Virus record (IMG/VR): IMGVR_UViG_3300034190_000422
Span: 1 to 33,630 of that record
From: a virus
Strand: one strand, 5' to 3'
Length of the DNA: 33,630 bases
Position 1 is the first letter of the stretch; each line of letters starts with the position of its first letter. A program made the translations under genes and the position numbers. This document shows positions 13,378-18,398 of this stretch, piece after piece. Below the pieces are notes generated by a model. That model searched no databases. It saw nothing but the letters and a program-made list of their open reading frames with translations, and was not told the origin of the DNA.

Positions 13378-13831
13378 AAACAAAGAGGATCAGAAAGAGT
13401 ATTGGGAAAAATGGTATGAAAAAAATAAAGAAAGTGTATTAAAAAGGATGAAAGAGTACAACTCAAAAGAAGAAAATAAATTAAAAAAACAGAAGTCCCA
13501 AGCTAATCTACACTTTCGCTATGTGGATATAAAGGGTAGAAGTAGAAAAAATAATATAGAATTTAATTTAACGGAAGAATACTTAGAAAGTATTTATCCG
13601 GCTGACGGCATATGTCCATTGCTAAATATAGCATTAGATTGGGATAGCCCTCCAAGACATGACAGTACTCCTTCATTAGACAGAATTGATAATAATAAAG
13701 GATATATAAAAGGAAACGTACAATGGGTAAGTTGGAGAGCTAATAGACTTATGAGTAATATGCAACCAGATGAAATTCTTATGCTTGCCCAAAACTACAA
13801 AAAGATATATGACAAAGTTCAACTCTCGTAG
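13367..13831 (+). CDS. free-standing HNH homing-type endonuclease, 154 aa
   Basis: The C-terminal half carries the phage HNH pattern: ICPLLNIALDW, then RHDSTPSLDRIDNNKGYIKG and NVQWVSWRANRLMSN. The N-terminal half is lysine-rich and probably binds DNA. Such genes spread by cutting alleles that lack them and commonly settle next to ribonucleotide reductase or DNA polymerase genes. It starts at a GTG inside the end of nrdJ, with AGGAGGGG five bases upstream, and its TAG stop lies inside the tRNA-Arg gene. It looks more A-rich than its neighbours, consistent with recent arrival. Confidence 0.85.
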   Translation: MGYKNKEDQKEYWEKWYEKNKESVLKRMKEYNSKEENKLKKQKSQANLHFRYVDIKGRSRKNNIEFNLTEEYLESIYPADGICPLLNIALDWDSPPRHDSTPSLDRIDNNKGYIKGNVQWVSWRANRLMSNMQPDEILMLAQNYKKIYDKVQLS

Positions 13832-13897
13832 CTCAATGGATAGAGCAACAGACTTCTAATCTGTAGGTTGCAGGTTCGAGTCCTGCCGAGAGTGCCA
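13822..13897 (+). tRNA. tRNA-Arg (anticodon TCT), CCA encoded
   Basis: A full cloverleaf can be drawn: acceptor ACTCTCG/CGAGAGT (13822-13828 with 13887-13893), D stem GCTC/GAGC, anticodon stem ACAGA/TCTGT with anticodon TCT at 13855-13857, variable AGGTT, T stem GCAGG/CCTGC with loop TTCGAGT, discriminator G and encoded CCA at 13895-13897. All four stems are perfect. It reads AGA and by wobble AGG, the dominant arginine codons in the phage genes checked. The HNH stop codon overlaps tRNA positions 8-10. Confidence 0.97.
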
Positions 13898-14467: not shown

Positions 14468-14608
14468 ATGTCAAAAGAAGTAAATAAAAAAATCTTAGAA
14501 ACCTATCCAGTAAAAAAGAAAACAAGTATTGGTATGTCGGTTCTTTCCAGACCAACTAACAAATCAAAACGTAAAGCTTGGAAACCTTACAAAGGACAAG
14601 GAAAGTAA
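14468..14608 (+). CDS. very small basic protein, 46 aa
   Basis: A lysine-rich 46-residue frame ending in a proline/lysine/glycine tail (KAWKPYKGQGK). Its stop shares a base with the next start (TAATG), as elsewhere in this genome. The C-terminal GMSVLSRPTNKSKRK then KPYKGQGK pattern is similar to tiny proteins seen in other marine phages, by recollection only. It probably binds nucleic acid given its charge. No ribosome binding site is obvious because the hairpin sits just upstream. Confidence 0.6.
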   Translation: MSKEVNKKILETYPVKKKTSIGMSVLSRPTNKSKRKAWKPYKGQGK

Positions 14609-15066
14609 TGAGTAAATTCTTAAAGTTAGACAATGAAGTATTTAATATTTTTTGGCCTGACTTGAGTAAACTTTTTATAAAGGTTATTAAAACTCAAGCA
14701 TCAGGAAGAGATAGCCTTGAGCTACTACACACAAAGATTTCTAATAATCTATTAGATGTGTGGGTCTACAGAGGAGAAGATGGTGTATACAATGATGATG
14801 GCGTTATTGAGGCTGCATTCTGCACAACCATCACAGAGTATCCCGATAAACGTAGTCTCTTCTGGGGATATATGTCAGCAGATAATAATACTATGAATAA
14901 CTGGAAAGAATCTTTATGGACTACTCTTAGAAACTATGGCAATCAAAATCAATGTGACTGCATAGAATATTTTTCAAACAGAACAGGATGGACTAGAGTG
15001 TTAGAAGAAAACGATGACGTTGAAAACATTGAGCCGATAGGGACTATATTTGAGATTAAATTATAA
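14608..15066 (+). CDS. GNAT-like hypothetical phage protein, 152 aa
   Basis: The layout resembles small phage proteins with an acetyltransferase-like (GNAT) fold: an N-terminal helix pair with FWPDLSKLFIKV, a strand region LDVWVYRGEDG, IEAAFCTTITEYP, a LFWGYMSADN segment, and a final GWTRVLEEN region. The acetyl-CoA loop is not clear, so enzymatic activity is uncertain. The frame is open to 14578, but the TAATG overlap at 14608 is preferred. It is coupled to the glycosyltransferase gene that follows (TAATG). Confidence 0.55.
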   Translation: MSKFLKLDNEVFNIFWPDLSKLFIKVIKTQASGRDSLELLHTKISNNLLDVWVYRGEDGVYNDDGVIEAAFCTTITEYPDKRSLFWGYMSADNNTMNNWKESLWTTLRNYGNQNQCDCIEYFSNRTGWTRVLEENDDVENIEPIGTIFEIKL

Positions 15067-15866
15067 TGACAACAGATAACACCATACCTAATATTTATAT
15101 TGGTTATGACTCTAGAGAGGACCAAGCTTATAGAGTTTTAAGAGAGTCAATCTTGGATCATACAAGCGCACCTGTAAATATTATTCCCTTGAAACAGGGG
15201 CGACTTAGAGATATTAATTTTTACAGACGAAGCTATTATGTATCGGGTGACGGTACTAAGTTAGATGACACAGACAGGAAACCATTCTCTACAGAATTTA
15301 GTTTTACCAGATTTCTTGTACCGTTTCTAAATATGCATAGAGGTACTGCTCTTTTTATGGACTGTGACATGCTGGTGAGATCAGATATTATGGAAGTTTT
15401 CGATATTCCTAAACACTCAGAGAGGAAAGCTCTCTGGTGTGTCAAACATGACTATAATCCTAAGTCTTCTATCAAGATGGATGGACAGGTACAGCAGCAG
15501 TATAGTAGAAAGAACTGGTCTTCTTTTATGTTGTGGTCCTGTAGCCACCCCGATCATAAAAATCTTACTATAGATGATGTCAATTTAAAAACTGGTTGGT
15601 ACTTACATAACTTTCAGTGGTTAGATGACAAAGATATTGGAGAGATTGATCAAGCATGGAACTGGTTAGACGGGCATTCGGATGATACCCTTAATGCAAA
15701 GAATGTACACTTTACAAGTGGTGGTCCTTGGTTTAAAGAATGGGAACCAAAGCAAAGATCAGATGCTAAGTATGCTTTAGAGTGGGAAGTTTTATCAGAC
15801 AGTATTGAAGTAGAGGAAGTTCTCGGAAAGGAGAAACAATTAAAATGGAAAAAATCTTATGTTTAA
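15066..15866 (+). CDS. GT-A-fold glycosyltransferase, 266 aa
   Basis: Transfers a sugar from a nucleotide-sugar donor. The N-terminus PNIYIGYDSREDQAYRVL and the metal-binding D-x-D in LFMDCDMLV (Asp99, Asp101) follow the GT8-like pattern. Later segments such as TGWYLHNFQWL and HFTSGGPW fit the acceptor side. No membrane segment, so cytoplasmic. The acceptor is unknown: possibilities are host surface polysaccharide, phage DNA or a virion protein. It overlaps the next glycosyltransferase gene by 8 bases, suggesting the two work together. Confidence 0.75.
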   Translation: MTTDNTIPNIYIGYDSREDQAYRVLRESILDHTSAPVNIIPLKQGRLRDINFYRRSYYVSGDGTKLDDTDRKPFSTEFSFTRFLVPFLNMHRGTALFMDCDMLVRSDIMEVFDIPKHSERKALWCVKHDYNPKSSIKMDGQVQQQYSRKNWSSFMLWSCSHPDHKNLTIDDVNLKTGWYLHNFQWLDDKDIGEIDQAWNWLDGHSDDTLNAKNVHFTSGGPWFKEWEPKQRSDAKYALEWEVLSDSIEVEEVLGKEKQLKWKKSYV

Positions 15867-17571
15867 AAATGTAACTGTAGTAACTTCCTTTTCAGAGGAT
15901 GGCTGGGAAACATATGCTAAAGATATGGTCTGGTCTATTGCGGAACATTGGGACCCAGCCATTAAAGTTATTGCTTATTATCATGACTTTGATATTAACA
16001 CAAAGGACCTACCTAAATCTAAAAGTATTGAATACAGAAACTTAAATGATTTGAATGAGCTTATTGAATTTAGAGAACGGTTTAAGGAATACGATGGCAC
16101 CATGGGTGGTAAAACATCCTACACCTTTAGGCTAGACGCTATAAAATTTTGCCATAAGGTTTTTGCTATCACAGACTGTGCATTTAATTTATCAGAGACG
16201 ATGGAAAAGCCGGGATGGCTTGTGTGGTTGGACGCAGATACGGTAGCTGTTCGACCACTTAATAGACACCAATTATTACAGAGCCTTCCAAAAAATTCTG
16301 ATATAGTACATCTGGGAAGAAAAAATTTTACATATAGTGAAACATCTTTTATTGGTTTTAATTTAGAAAGCCAACCACCCGTAGACTTCTTGGGAGATTT
16401 TCTGGGAGCATACTTATCAGGAGAACTCTTTCATTACAGAGAATGGCATGATGGTTTTATTTTTGAGAGACTTATAACAATCTATAAGGCTCATGGATTA
16501 AAGTTCCATGATTGGACAGGTAGCCTTGACATTAAAAGTATGACGGAGGGTAAGCAAGCTTTTGATTTATTTCCGCTATCAGATTATGTAAAACACAAAA
16601 AGGGTGCAAAGAAAAAGAAAAGCTTAAAGCTGCCACTTAGTGTAGACCCATCAGTACATGTATCAGTGGCAGAAGCAAAACCAATACCAATCGTAATTCA
16701 ACCTAGAGACTGTATGCCAAAGGAAGACATTCAGAATAATGTAAAACAAAACACTAAGATTATTAAGAAGTGGGTTGGTAGAGCAAGTCCTAACGACGAG
16801 GTTGCTCTTATCGTTTCTGGTGGATCAAGCACTGACTTTGATAAGGTTAGGTCTATCATTAAAATGGAAGGTGAGGAAAGAACAAAGGTGGTATGTGTTA
16901 AACATTCTTATCCTACTCTCCTTAAAGAAGGTATCTCTCCTTGGGCATGTGTAATCCTAGACCCTAGACCTATTGAAGGTATAAGTACACATGGTGTTGT
17001 ACGAAAAGATTTGTTTAAAACGATTGATAAGAAGACAATCTTTATGCCAGCATCTATGACTGATCCCTCTATTACCAAACTTATTAAAAAGAAAACAAAT
17101 AATATTATTGGATGGCATGCATTCACACAATCACTTCAAGAAAATCAAAAAGATAAGCTTGTTAATAATGCAGTAAAGGTAAATGAAGAGCTTGGTATTG
17201 CAGAAGGGGCTACCATGATTACCGGAGGAACCTGTGCTGCTATGAGATCGATAGGCATTATGCACACACTAGGGTTTAGAAAGTTCCATCTGTTTGGTTA
17301 TGACTGTTCTTTCCCAGAGCCATCCGAAGAAGAAAAAGAAAAACTATTAGAGGATGGAAAGCCTAAGTATCTAAAGGTAGGTATTAAAGATAAAGAATAC
17401 TGGACAACGGGAGAACTTATTGCTATGGCACAAGATTGTGAAAAGCTTTTTTCAAAAGAAGATGTTGACATGAAGATTAATTTTCATGGAGAGGATACCC
17501 TTGTTGCTTCTTGTTGGGAACTATCTCCAGTACATCAACTAAAACACTATCATCAAGTACTAGATTTATAG
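15859..17571 (+). CDS. two-domain protein: glycosyltransferase fused to a DUF115/Maf-like domain, 570 aa
   Basis: The N-terminal part (about 1-240) looks like a second GT-A glycosyltransferase, with WLVWLDADTVAV (Asp125, Asp127). A lysine-rich linker (KHKKGAKKKKSLKL) leads to a C-terminal Rossmann-like domain resembling DUF115/MAF motility accessory factors: ALIVSGGSS, SPWACVILDPRP, ITGGTCAAMRSIGIMHTLGF and FHLFGYDCSF. Maf-type proteins put nonulosonic acid sugars on flagellin, so this fusion may glycosylate a protein or handle sialic-acid-like sugars. That link is inferred. An AGGAGG ribosome binding site for the holin gene follows at once. Confidence 0.7.
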   Translation: MFKNVTVVTSFSEDGWETYAKDMVWSIAEHWDPAIKVIAYYHDFDINTKDLPKSKSIEYRNLNDLNELIEFRERFKEYDGTMGGKTSYTFRLDAIKFCHKVFAITDCAFNLSETMEKPGWLVWLDADTVAVRPLNRHQLLQSLPKNSDIVHLGRKNFTYSETSFIGFNLESQPPVDFLGDFLGAYLSGELFHYREWHDGFIFERLITIYKAHGLKFHDWTGSLDIKSMTEGKQAFDLFPLSDYVKHKKGAKKKKSLKLPLSVDPSVHVSVAEAKPIPIVIQPRDCMPKEDIQNNVKQNTKIIKKWVGRASPNDEVALIVSGGSSTDFDKVRSIIKMEGEERTKVVCVKHSYPTLLKEGISPWACVILDPRPIEGISTHGVVRKDLFKTIDKKTIFMPASMTDPSITKLIKKKTNNIIGWHAFTQSLQENQKDKLVNNAVKVNEELGIAEGATMITGGTCAAMRSIGIMHTLGFRKFHLFGYDCSFPEPSEEEKEKLLEDGKPKYLKVGIKDKEYWTTGELIAMAQDCEKLFSKEDVDMKINFHGEDTLVASCWELSPVHQLKHYHQVLDL

Positions 17572-17580
17572 GAGGATATT

Positions 17581-17985
17581 ATGTTAGGAATTGCAGAGAG
17601 TGTTATTGGAGTAGCTGGTAAAGTCCTTGATAAATTTGTAGAGGATAAAGATTTAAAAACTAAACTTGACGCAGAACTTAGATCACAATTAATTAATCTA
17701 GATACTCTTCAAGCACAAACAAATATGGAACAAGCCAAACATGATTCTATTTTCGTTGCTGGGGCAAGGCCAGCTATCATGTGGATATGTGCCTTTGCTT
17801 TGGCTTGGCAGTACATCCTAGCCCCTATGGGAGCATGGGCATTAGCTGTATGGTATCCTGTTGTAACACTCCCAGAGCTAGGCACTGAGGAGCTTACAGG
17901 GCTTATCATGGCATTACTCGGATTGGGAGCAGCTAGGTCATACGAAAAATCTAAGGGCGTAGCAAGGAACAGTATGAATAGGTAG
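17581..17985 (+). CDS. holin, GTA 3-TM type, 134 aa
   Basis: Resembles the holin family linked to gene transfer agent release in alphaproteobacteria. An N-terminal amphipathic helical region (GKVLDKFVEDKDLKTKLDAE) is followed by hydrophobic spans around FVAGARPAIMWICAFALAW, ILAPMGAWALAVWYPV and LTGLIMALLGLGAARSYEK. It would make the inner-membrane hole that starts lysis. It is encoded on the early/middle strand, whereas the M15 endolysin lies in the late operon on the other strand. AGGAGG precedes the start. The family is the best host clue in the window. Confidence 0.85.
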   Translation: MLGIAESVIGVAGKVLDKFVEDKDLKTKLDAELRSQLINLDTLQAQTNMEQAKHDSIFVAGARPAIMWICAFALAWQYILAPMGAWALAVWYPVVTLPELGTEELTGLIMALLGLGAARSYEKSKGVARNSMNR

Positions 17986-17990
17986 TTAAT

Positions 17991-18398
17991 ATGTTAAATG
18001 AAAAACAAGAGAAGTTTGCACAAGCGTATGTCTTAAATCATAATGCTACTGATGCAGCAAAAACAGCAGGGTACTCTGATAGATCAGCTTATAACCAAGG
18101 TTATAGGCTTCTACAAGAAGAGGCTGTAAAGGAAAGGATTGAAGAGTTATCAAGAGACTTAACAACTAATGTAGATGTTGTGTCTGAGATTGAAAAACAA
18201 TATGAGTATGCTAAAGGTCAAGGACATATCAATAGTGCTATTAAGGCTCTTGAACTTTTGTCAAGAGTAAGAGGTAATACCGTTGATATAGGGAAGAATG
18301 TAGAAAAGGATGAGCTTGTAAACATGGTGGTAGGTTGTCTACAAGTTTTAGGTAAGGAAGAAGTAGATAAGATTATATCGAAGTGTACCTTTGATTAA
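17991..18398 (+). CDS. terS: terminase small subunit, 135 aa
   Basis: The Terminase_2 pattern is clear: LNEKQEKFAQAYVLNHNATDAA, KTAGYSDRSAYNQGYRLL and VKERIEEL, the N-terminal helix-turn-helix used to recognise phage DNA for packaging. The C-terminal half is helical and should mediate ring assembly and contact with the large subunit. No large subunit follows; the gene is the last on this strand and meets the late genes head-on. The large subunit therefore must be encoded elsewhere, probably beyond the right edge. Confidence 0.88.
   Translation: MLNEKQEKFAQAYVLNHNATDAAKTAGYSDRSAYNQGYRLLQEEAVKERIEELSRDLTTNVDVVSEIEKQYEYAKGQGHINSAIKALELLSRVRGNTVDIGKNVEKDELVNMVVGCLQVLGKEEVDKIISKCTFD

What the first reader, a model, noticed from the sequence alone, without database searches (positions are those of the whole stretch)
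15066..17571. Overlapping glycosyltransferase pair, one fused to a DUF115/Maf-like domain
Two GT-A enzymes (D-x-D at 99-101 and 125-127) overlap by 8 bases. The second continues through a lysine-rich linker into a Rossmann-like domain similar to motility accessory factors, which glycosylate flagellin. With the acyl module this phage encodes two possible kinds of macromolecule modification. Targets could be host surface sugars (blocking superinfection), phage DNA, or virion proteins.
Basis: partly seen in the sequence, partly recalled or inferred. Interest (0 to 1): 0.55.

Follow-up and report, generated by a model that had tools for sequence, protein, structure and literature searches.

The report
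Phage glycan-building enzyme pair, domain-swapped
A marine-type phage carries two side-by-side sugar-attaching enzymes, the second a fusion whose relatives usually contain an extra methyl-adding domain that this phage lacks, perhaps through an exchange with a relative; such enzymes may decorate the phage particle or its host's surface.

Summary
ORF1 (15066-15866) and ORF2 (15859-17571) overlap by 8 bases and carry D-x-D at 99-101 and 125-127. Predicted structures are GT-A: ORF1 resembles GT8 enzymes (GlyE Z 16.6), ORF2 residues 1-254 GT6/GT8/PBCV-1 A064R enzymes (Z 13-14). ORF2 residues 287-556 match the flagellin transferase Maf (Z 19.5) ahead of archaeal HPPK/MptE (Z 14.7); Pfam gives PF01973. 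Neither proposed refutation occurred.

The window with one relative, and a second lineage of seven contigs, lack it; the GT-A tree needs two changes. An ~800-bp tract of the window (about 15,906-16,703: most of the GT-A domain and the linker) resembles contig L002, both flanks L003: domain exchange at the seam, seen on one contig. ORF1 is upstream in 75 of 75 loci, terminase small subunit downstream in 64 of 64. In other phages ORF1 relatives lie near separate methyltransferase, sialyltransferase-like or CMP-Kdo genes.

Best reading: a glycan-assembly pair using host-supplied sugars, probably acting on virion protein (0.45); host surface glycan is nearly as likely, DNA unlikely. New variant of a known kind.

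The parts
15066..15866 (+). ORF1: GT8-like GT-A glycosyltransferase, 266 aa
   Evidence: phrog_28018, function unknown, E 3.5e-49; profile of 40 sequences to WbbM 6u4b E 2.6e-4, DxD aligned; GlyE 5gvv Z 16.6, rmsd 3.3, 205 aligned
15360..15368 (+). D-C-D (residues 99-101), the DxD motif of ORF1
   Evidence: D99 and D101 invariant in 35 sequences
15859..17571 (+). ORF2: two-domain protein, GT-A + Maf-like DUF115, 570 aa; overlaps ORF1 by 8 bases
15859..16608 (+). ORF2 residues 1-250: GT-A domain
   Evidence: 1g8o Z 13.8; PBCV-1 A064R domain 1, 2p73, Z 13.7; LARGE1 Z 13.6
16231..16239 (+). D-A-D (residues 125-127), the DxD motif of ORF2
   Evidence: invariant
16609..16686 (+). linker (residues 251-276), disordered in the model; about 200 residues of SAM-methyltransferase stand here in most relatives
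16735..17319 (+). PF01973 match (residues 293-487): Maf/DUF115-like domain; the structural match spans residues 287-556
   Evidence: (5mu5 Z 19.5, rmsd 3.3, 224 aligned)
15904..16709 (+). recombination tract: L002-like inside, L003-like on both sides; breakpoints lie between 15903 and 15909 and between 16695 and 16710
   Evidence: 195 of 205 diagnostic sites in 15870-16700 L002-like; 1159 of 1240 outside L003-like
14578..15066 (+). context: 162-aa protein of unknown function directly upstream, 1-base overlap with ORF1; found by tblastn in close relatives only
17581..17985 (+). context: holin (GTA_holin_3TM)
17991..18398 (+). context: terminase small subunit, downstream of ORF2 in 64 of 64 loci with flank

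Best explanation
The pair is a phage-encoded glycan-assembly unit of soluble enzymes. ORF1 (GT8-like, DxD, probably using a nucleotide sugar and a metal) and the N-terminal half of ORF2 (GT-A, DxD) each add a sugar; the C-terminal half of ORF2, built like the central domain of Maf, adds an acidic sugar from a CMP-activated donor, most plausibly CMP-Kdo or another ulosonate made by the host. In most relatives a methyltransferase domain between the two halves would methylate the product; the window's copy lacks it, so its glycan would be unmethylated. The most likely acceptor is a protein of the phage particle, so that domain exchange inside ORF2 changes the sugar coat of the virion. Shown by sequence and predicted fold: domain content, fixed pair, presence or absence of the methyltransferase; the mosaic is shown on one contig. 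Inferred: activities, donors, order of reactions, acceptor. The glycan-enzyme reading without the acceptor I hold at about 0.85.
For: Folds and motifs. Closest fold of the C-terminal half is Maf, a protein O-glycosyltransferase (Z 19.5 against 14.7 for HPPK/MptE); NCBIfam's nearest model is flagellin-modifying PseD (E 1.6e-5, 23.7 bits, far under its cut-off). A Maf uses CMP-Neu5Ac and CMP-KDO as donors, and the Maf central domain resembles the sialyltransferase Cst-II (PMC11339370, abstract and passages). Methyltransferase domain: PF13578 above cut-off in the 4 three-domain relatives scanned. Fixed pair: ORF1 relative upstream in 75 of 75 loci with over 500 bases of flank, terminase small subunit downstream in 64 of 64 with over 1000 bases; a pair kept throughout a lineage beside packaging genes suggests a role in the virion. 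The same ingredients as separate genes near ORF1 relatives in other phages: a GT29 sialyltransferase-like gene overlapping by 8 bases and a methyltransferase (Stenotrophomonas DLP_6), a weak PF01973 gene just after a tail-protein gene (CcrColossus), KdsA/KdsB, the CMP-Kdo pathway (S-SCSM2R). Precedent: PBCV-1 A064R, one protein with GT, GT and methyltransferase domains that builds the capsid glycan; a spontaneous variant truncated in the methyltransferase domain has an unmethylated glycan, and truncation of that domain defines an antigenic class (PMC9614988, passages). No strongly hydrophobic stretch in either protein.
Against: Nothing identifies the acceptor. The ORF1-like folds LgtC and WbbM, and the GT9 heptosyltransferase-like genes near ORF1 relatives in two Caulobacter phages, are types usual in lipopolysaccharide synthesis. 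The pair lies on the strand of the replication genes; the structural genes are on the other strand. Maf's C-terminal domain, which gives acceptor specificity in one Maf (PMC13317340 passages), is absent. No CMP-sugar gene showed among the scanned window ORFs. The junction that shows the exchange was found on no other viral contig by exact match, so an assembly chimera is possible for this copy. PF01973 is named for a pterin enzyme and HPPK is the second-best fold.
Confidence: 0.45

Rival explanations
1. The pair modifies the host's lipopolysaccharide or other surface glycan during infection, blocking adsorption of other phages or re-adsorption of progeny to debris.
For: GT8-like and GT9-like enzymes, and KdsA/KdsB near one ORF1 relative, are usual lipopolysaccharide chemistry; donors would come from the host; soluble enzymes can act on the inner face of the membrane. 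Glycosyltransferases of myovirus pelagiphages have been filed under lipopolysaccharide modification (PMC9599517, passages).
Against: The pair is fixed in the loci examined, beside packaging genes, unlike a dispensable cargo gene; neither protein has a membrane-like stretch; the closest fold of the Maf-like domain is a protein glycosyltransferase.
Confidence: 0.33
2. The enzymes glycosylate phage DNA bases.
For: Phage glycosyltransferases are known to do this, and hypermodification genes occur in HTVC023P-type pelagiphages (PMC9599517, passages).
Against: ThyA family, the usual source of hydroxymethylated bases (own knowledge), in 0 of 12 records; only ThyX, in 8 of 12; ADDT in 0 of 12 with a silent control. 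The records may be incomplete. A Maf-like domain has no DNA role that I know of.
Confidence: 0.06
3. The C-terminal domain is a true MptE-type pyrophosphokinase (pterin or nucleotide metabolism) fused by accident to a glycosyltransferase.
For: Same Pfam family; HPPK of Methanocaldococcus is the second-best structural match (Z 14.7).
Against: Maf fits better (Z 19.5); fusion to a GT-A domain and, in relatives, a methyltransferase of a type found in sugar pathways, and linkage to a second GT, point to glycan chemistry.
Confidence: 0.05
4. A separate question: the mosaic of this copy is an assembly chimera, not biology.
For: The window's downstream junction was found on no other viral contig by exact match.
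Against: The domain-less form itself is on another contig (L002) and in a second lineage of 7 contigs; reading frames are open and under purifying selection. Whether the window and L002 come from one sample is not known to me.
Confidence: 0.2

Closest known systems
Maf flagellin glycosyltransferases (central domain pfam01973; Magnetospirillum Maf 5mu5, Clostridium botulinum Maf)
   Same: Fold of ORF2 residues 287-556 (Z 19.5), Pfam family
   Different: No Maf N- or C-terminal domain; fused to a GT-A domain (and a methyltransferase in relatives); phage; sequence identity 12% over the structural match
PBCV-1 A064R (chlorovirus capsid-glycan enzyme)
   Same: One viral protein carrying GT-A, a second transferase and a methyltransferase; loss of the methyltransferase domain changes the glycan in a spontaneous variant; GT-A domains match at Z 13.7
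   Different: The methyltransferase is at the end, not in the middle; its second transferase is described as a new GT family, not compared here with PF01973; infects algae; acceptor shown there, not here
GT8-type glycosyltransferases (GlyE, LgtC, glycogenin, WbbM GT8-type domain)
   Same: ORF1 fold (Z 16.6 to 16.1) and DxD position
   Different: No Pfam match for ORF1 up to E 1; donor and acceptor unknown
Sugar-modification clusters of phages Mosig, S-SCSM2R, CcrColossus, Caulobacter C1, DLP_6, ctDrO704
   Same: ORF1 relative (33-42% identity) near methyltransferase, sialyltransferase-like, sulfotransferase or CMP-Kdo genes
   Different: Separate genes rather than one fused protein; different phage groups
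Uncultured-phage proteins in BFVD such as A0A6J7X5Q0 (714 aa) and A0A6J5PVH5 (700 aa)
   Same: Similar length and predicted fold, annotated as methyltransferase-domain or MptE-like
   Different: 21% and 13% identity; no function assigned
Mycobacteriophage virion glycosylation (Freeman et al. 2023)
   Same: Glycans on capsid and tail-tube proteins of a phage (seen only as cited in PMC12619734, passages)
   Different: Enzymes not compared here

Membership tests
Maf (motility-associated factor) | Central pfam01973 domain with Maf fold | tested here: met
Maf (motility-associated factor) | N-terminal and C-terminal Maf domains flanking the central one (three-domain layout) | tested here: not met
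   The match covers 5mu5 residues 244-500 of a 632-residue chain; ORF2 ends 14 residues after it and has a GT-A domain before it; Pfam found only PF01973 above cut-off. So not filed as a Maf.
Maf (motility-associated factor) | Transfers a nonulosonic acid to flagellin | not testable with these tools
   needs enzymology
MptE / archaeal HPPK | Fold and PF01973 | tested here: inconclusive
   PF01973 shared; structural match weaker than to Maf (14.7 against 19.5)
GT-A glycosyltransferases | GT-A fold with DxD | tested here: met
   ORF1; ORF2
GT8 | Sequence profile of the family | tested here: inconclusive
   No Pfam hit for ORF1; profile search finds WbbM at E 2.6e-4 and GlyE at 0.017, and folds agree
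A064R-type capsid glycosylation enzyme | Several transferase domains and a methyltransferase in one viral protein | tested here: met
   in 72 of 80 relatives by motif, length and alignment, Pfam-checked in 4 and 10 records; the window itself lacks the methyltransferase
A064R-type capsid glycosylation enzyme | Acceptor is the major capsid protein's glycan | not testable with these tools
   needs glycoproteomics
DNA-modifying phage glycosyltransferases | Phage makes a hydroxymethylated base (ThyA-family gene) | tested here: not met
   0 of 12 records (control rang in 9 of 14); records may be incomplete

The most novel reading that the evidence does not exclude
A widespread phage lineage varies the sugar coat of its own particles by swapping domains inside one fused enzyme: recombination at the seam between the glycosyltransferase and Maf-like halves exchanges the transferase and adds or removes the methylating domain, a phage counterpart of capsid-glycan antigenic variation in chloroviruses.
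Probability: 0.3. Interest if true: 0.72.

Novelty: new variant of a known kind. Interest (0 to 1): 0.5.

Why it matters
Few enzymes are known that put sugars on phage particles. A fused glycosyltransferase/methyltransferase/Maf-like enzyme, kept throughout an uncultivated phage lineage and with natural variants that differ by one whole domain, gives ready-made pairs for asking what the glycan is, where it sits and what the methyl group does. If the Maf-like domain is active, it would extend Maf-type catalysis beyond flagellin.

Tried and rejected
Sequence searches of the PDB with ORF2 profiles found nothing useful. PHROGs gave no family for ORF2. No relative was confirmed in bacterial or archaeal genomes (11 stretches matched a pattern, 0 confirmed); the patterns were two short peptides, so distant cellular relatives are not excluded. 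Named phages: 2 of 50,697 records match ORF2, and only its GT-A part; a three-domain relative as query gave the same two. A stand-alone copy of the methyltransferase was sought by tblastn in the window and in 6 of the 8 two-domain loci (not L026, L027) and not found (two short matches at E 0.26-0.28); PF13578 was absent from the two 2-domain records searched and from Mosig, present in all 10 three-domain records searched. The records may be fragments.

Promoter- and terminator-like sites showed no excess over shuffles. The ADDT search had a silent control and is weak. From the rows for Hsp20 and the 162-aa protein were dropped: they aligned badly (minimum identity 4% and 3%). One search kept 80 of 102 confirmed relatives, and its two patterns both lie in the GT-A part, so relatives with another N-terminal half would be missed; the 80 include near-copies, and 13 of the 14 contigs recur among them, so searches are not independent. 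Trees use 65 rows (57 different for the GT-A part, 55 for DUF115) after leaving out identical proteins and 5 truncated ones; long branches were flagged (L039, L070, L099; L070, L087, L098). In one search, sites where the window matches neither contig, and gapped columns, were left out.

Literature: no paper on this fused enzyme was found (0 papers; DUF115 with phage: 4 papers listed; the one opened, matched DUF1156; the other three not opened; 15 of 19 listed; MptE-like, phage, viral; set too loosely at two of three terms, none of the 15 listed held MptE-like; 1 unrelated paper). Freeman et al. 2023 is not held. PMC9599517, PMC11339370, PMC13317340, PMC9614988, PMC12619734 and PMC12839542 were seen as passages (some also as the start of the abstract); others as listings only.
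Full report
What is there. ORF1 (15066-15866, 266 aa) and ORF2 (15859-17571, 570 aa) are on the + strand and overlap by 8 bases. ORF1 begins on the last base of the stop of a 162-aa ORF, and ORF2 is followed by a holin and the terminase small subunit. The window is a viral record of 33,630 bases, 36.9% G+C, with a primase-helicase, DNA polymerase, Cas4-type exonuclease, ribonucleotide reductase and ThyX. Its polymerase is nearest to pelagiphages HTVC103P/104P/115P (44-48% identity), and a virion protein to phage DSL-LC04 and HTVC023P (36% and 32%); the host is not known.

ORF1. No Pfam family, but PHROG 28018 (function unknown) at E 3.5e-49. A profile of 40 sequences reaches WbbM (6u4b) at E 2.6e-4 with DxD aligned to DxD. 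The AlphaFold2 model (35 sequences, mean pLDDT 85.2) matches GlyE Z 16.6, LARGE1 16.5, LgtC 16.4, WbbM 16.2, glycogenin 16.1 (tied). It is a GT-A enzyme of GT8 type.

ORF2. The model (37 sequences, pLDDT 83.7, residues 250-275 below 50) has two parts. Residues 1-254 match GT-A enzymes: GT6 galactosyltransferase 1g8o Z 13.8 (rmsd 3.2, 190 aligned), PBCV-1 A064R domain 1 Z 13.7 (rmsd 3.1, 182 aligned), LARGE1 13.6, glycogenin 13.3 (tied). Residues 287-556 match Magnetospirillum Maf at Z 19.5 (rmsd 3.3, 224 aligned), ahead of archaeal HPPK/MptE at 14.7 (rmsd 3.4, 197 aligned). Pfam gives PF01973 above cut-off; NCBIfam's nearest is PseD, E 1.6e-5, far under its cut-off. Conserved motifs include SGGxS and F-G-x-D-C; in the seven-contig lineage the first reads SGGPSL, which I recall as a Maf/GT42-type motif (recalled, from no call).

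The third domain of the relatives. A search with ORF2 found 14 viral loci: 12 encode a protein about 195 residues longer (one of them cut by a contig end), L002 does not, L015 is too short to tell. The extra stretch is a class I SAM-methyltransferase: PF13578 above cut-off in the 4 three-domain proteins scanned, absent from the L002 protein. With an alignment as query, 102 relatives were confirmed and 80 kept. Of the 80, 72 have the domain by motif, length and alignment (5 of them truncated) and 8 do not: L022 (same contig as L002), L025-L030 and L083. With the window, 9 of 65 aligned proteins lack it. On the GT-A tree these need two changes, and well-supported branches force two; on the DUF115 tree they need three, because the window's DUF115 part groups with three-domain L023/L024. 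The window's line is nested among three-domain relatives, so loss there is the simplest account; the direction in the other line was not tested.

This copy is a mosaic. Against L003 (three-domain) and L002 (two-domain), the window is 93-100% identical to L003 in 100-base bins from 13.9 to 15.9 kb and 97-100% from 16.7 to 18.4 kb, but in the bins between it is 96-99% identical to L002 and 56-86% to L003. Of sites that tell the two apart, 195 of 205 in 15870-16700 follow L002 and 1159 of 1240 outside follow L003. Breakpoints fall between 15903 and 15909 (codons 15-17 of ORF2) and between 16695 and 16710, at the seam before the Maf-like domain. So a three-domain gene appears to have received a GT-A-plus-linker piece and lost its methyltransferase in one exchange. 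The junction was found on no other viral contig by exact match, while a stretch of the linker was found on L002's contig alone; an assembly chimera cannot be ruled out for this one copy.

A fixed gene pair. ORF1's relative lies directly upstream in 75 of 75 loci with more than 500 bases of upstream flank; the overlap is 8 bases in 29, 1 base in 37, other values (up to a 55-base gap) in 9. The terminase small subunit lies downstream in 64 of 64 loci with more than 1000 bases, at most 1,595 bases away. Hsp20, the 162-aa ORF and the holin were found only in part of the relatives. Selection is purifying (median dN/dS 0.12 ORF1, 0.04 GT-A part, 0.01 methyltransferase, 0.07 DUF115, from 8, 6, 3 and 5 usable pairs of 28, 28, 15 and 28). 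In this close clade of 8, ORF1 (76% mean identity), GT-A part (81%), methyltransferase (82%, 6 sequences) and DUF115 (83%) vary more than ribonucleotide reductase (94%), terminase (91%) and holin (90%).

Elsewhere the parts are separate genes. ORF1 relatives occur in 18 phage records; I looked at six regions. Stenotrophomonas DLP_6: the next gene overlaps by 8 bases and matches PF00777, GT29 sialyltransferase (31.8 bits, cut-off 23); upstream are one methyltransferase and one weak match. CcrColossus and Caulobacter C1: a gene just after a very large gene (annotated as tail protein in CcrColossus) matches PF01973 below cut-off and over about 33 residues (31.8 and 23.9 bits against 34.6), with GT9 genes in both and a methyltransferase in C1. 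S-SCSM2R: KdsB and KdsA, the CMP-Kdo pathway, within 3 kb. Mosig: relatives of both glycosyltransferases adjacent in reverse order, two FkbM methyltransferases and a sulfotransferase; no PF01973 or PF13578 match in its record. ctDrO704: a methyltransferase and an SU10-type adaptor gene. So a methyltransferase is near in 4 of 6 and a sialyltransferase- or Maf-like gene in 3 of 6 (two of these below cut-off). The fused protein joins parts that keep company elsewhere.

Mechanism. Shown: domain content, predicted folds, conserved DxD motifs, fixed pairing, presence or absence of the methyltransferase; the mosaic on one contig. Inferred: two GT-A steps with nucleotide sugars; one step by the Maf-like domain with a CMP-ulosonate, because Maf of Clostridium botulinum takes CMP-Neu5Ac and CMP-KDO and the Maf central domain resembles Cst-II (PMC11339370), and Kdo is common in Gram-negative hosts (own knowledge); methylation in relatives. 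The acceptor is the weak link. For a virion protein: a pair kept beside packaging genes, Maf's protein acceptor, and the precedent of PBCV-1 A064R, where one protein with GT, GT and methyltransferase domains builds the end of the capsid glycan and a variant truncated in the methyltransferase has an unmethylated glycan (PMC9614988). For host surface: GT8, GT9 and Kdo are lipopolysaccharide chemistry. I put virion at 0.45, host surface 0.33. DNA is unlikely: ThyA family in 0 of 12 records, ThyX in 8 of 12.

Known or new. Proteins of similar size and fold already stand in public data as 'MptE-like' or 'methyltransferase domain' proteins of uncultured phages, without function; the searches named in Tried and rejected found no paper on this fused enzyme. 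It may work like known viral glycan-assembly enzymes, but it is not a Maf by membership. New variant of a known kind.

Recounting against the calls changed wording and some figures (identity ranges, the DLP_6 methyltransferases, the sample of L002) and raised the odds of an assembly chimera for this one copy from 0.11 to 0.2, because the sample of the window is not known to me.

Noticed in passing
   Followed up: no
L042 / record G002 (106,894 bp): Two copies of the DUF115 and methyltransferase domains (about 45 and 100 kb) and two ThyX genes on one contig: joined phages or a chimera.
   Followed up: no
record G010 (behind L083): Two ThyX genes on one 37-kb record, about 13 kb apart.
   Followed up: no
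window 13822-13897: tRNA-Arg (tct) overlapping the end of an endonuclease VII-like gene; the bin 13401-13500 is only 38-40% identical to both L003 and L002.
   Followed up: no
L025 4450-5016: An ORF that looks like a 2OG-Fe(II) oxygenase (my reading, no family search) between the ribonucleotide reductase and ORF1 relative.
   Followed up: no
window 14578-15066: 162-aa protein with no Pfam family, directly upstream of ORF1, found in close relatives only.
   Followed up: partly
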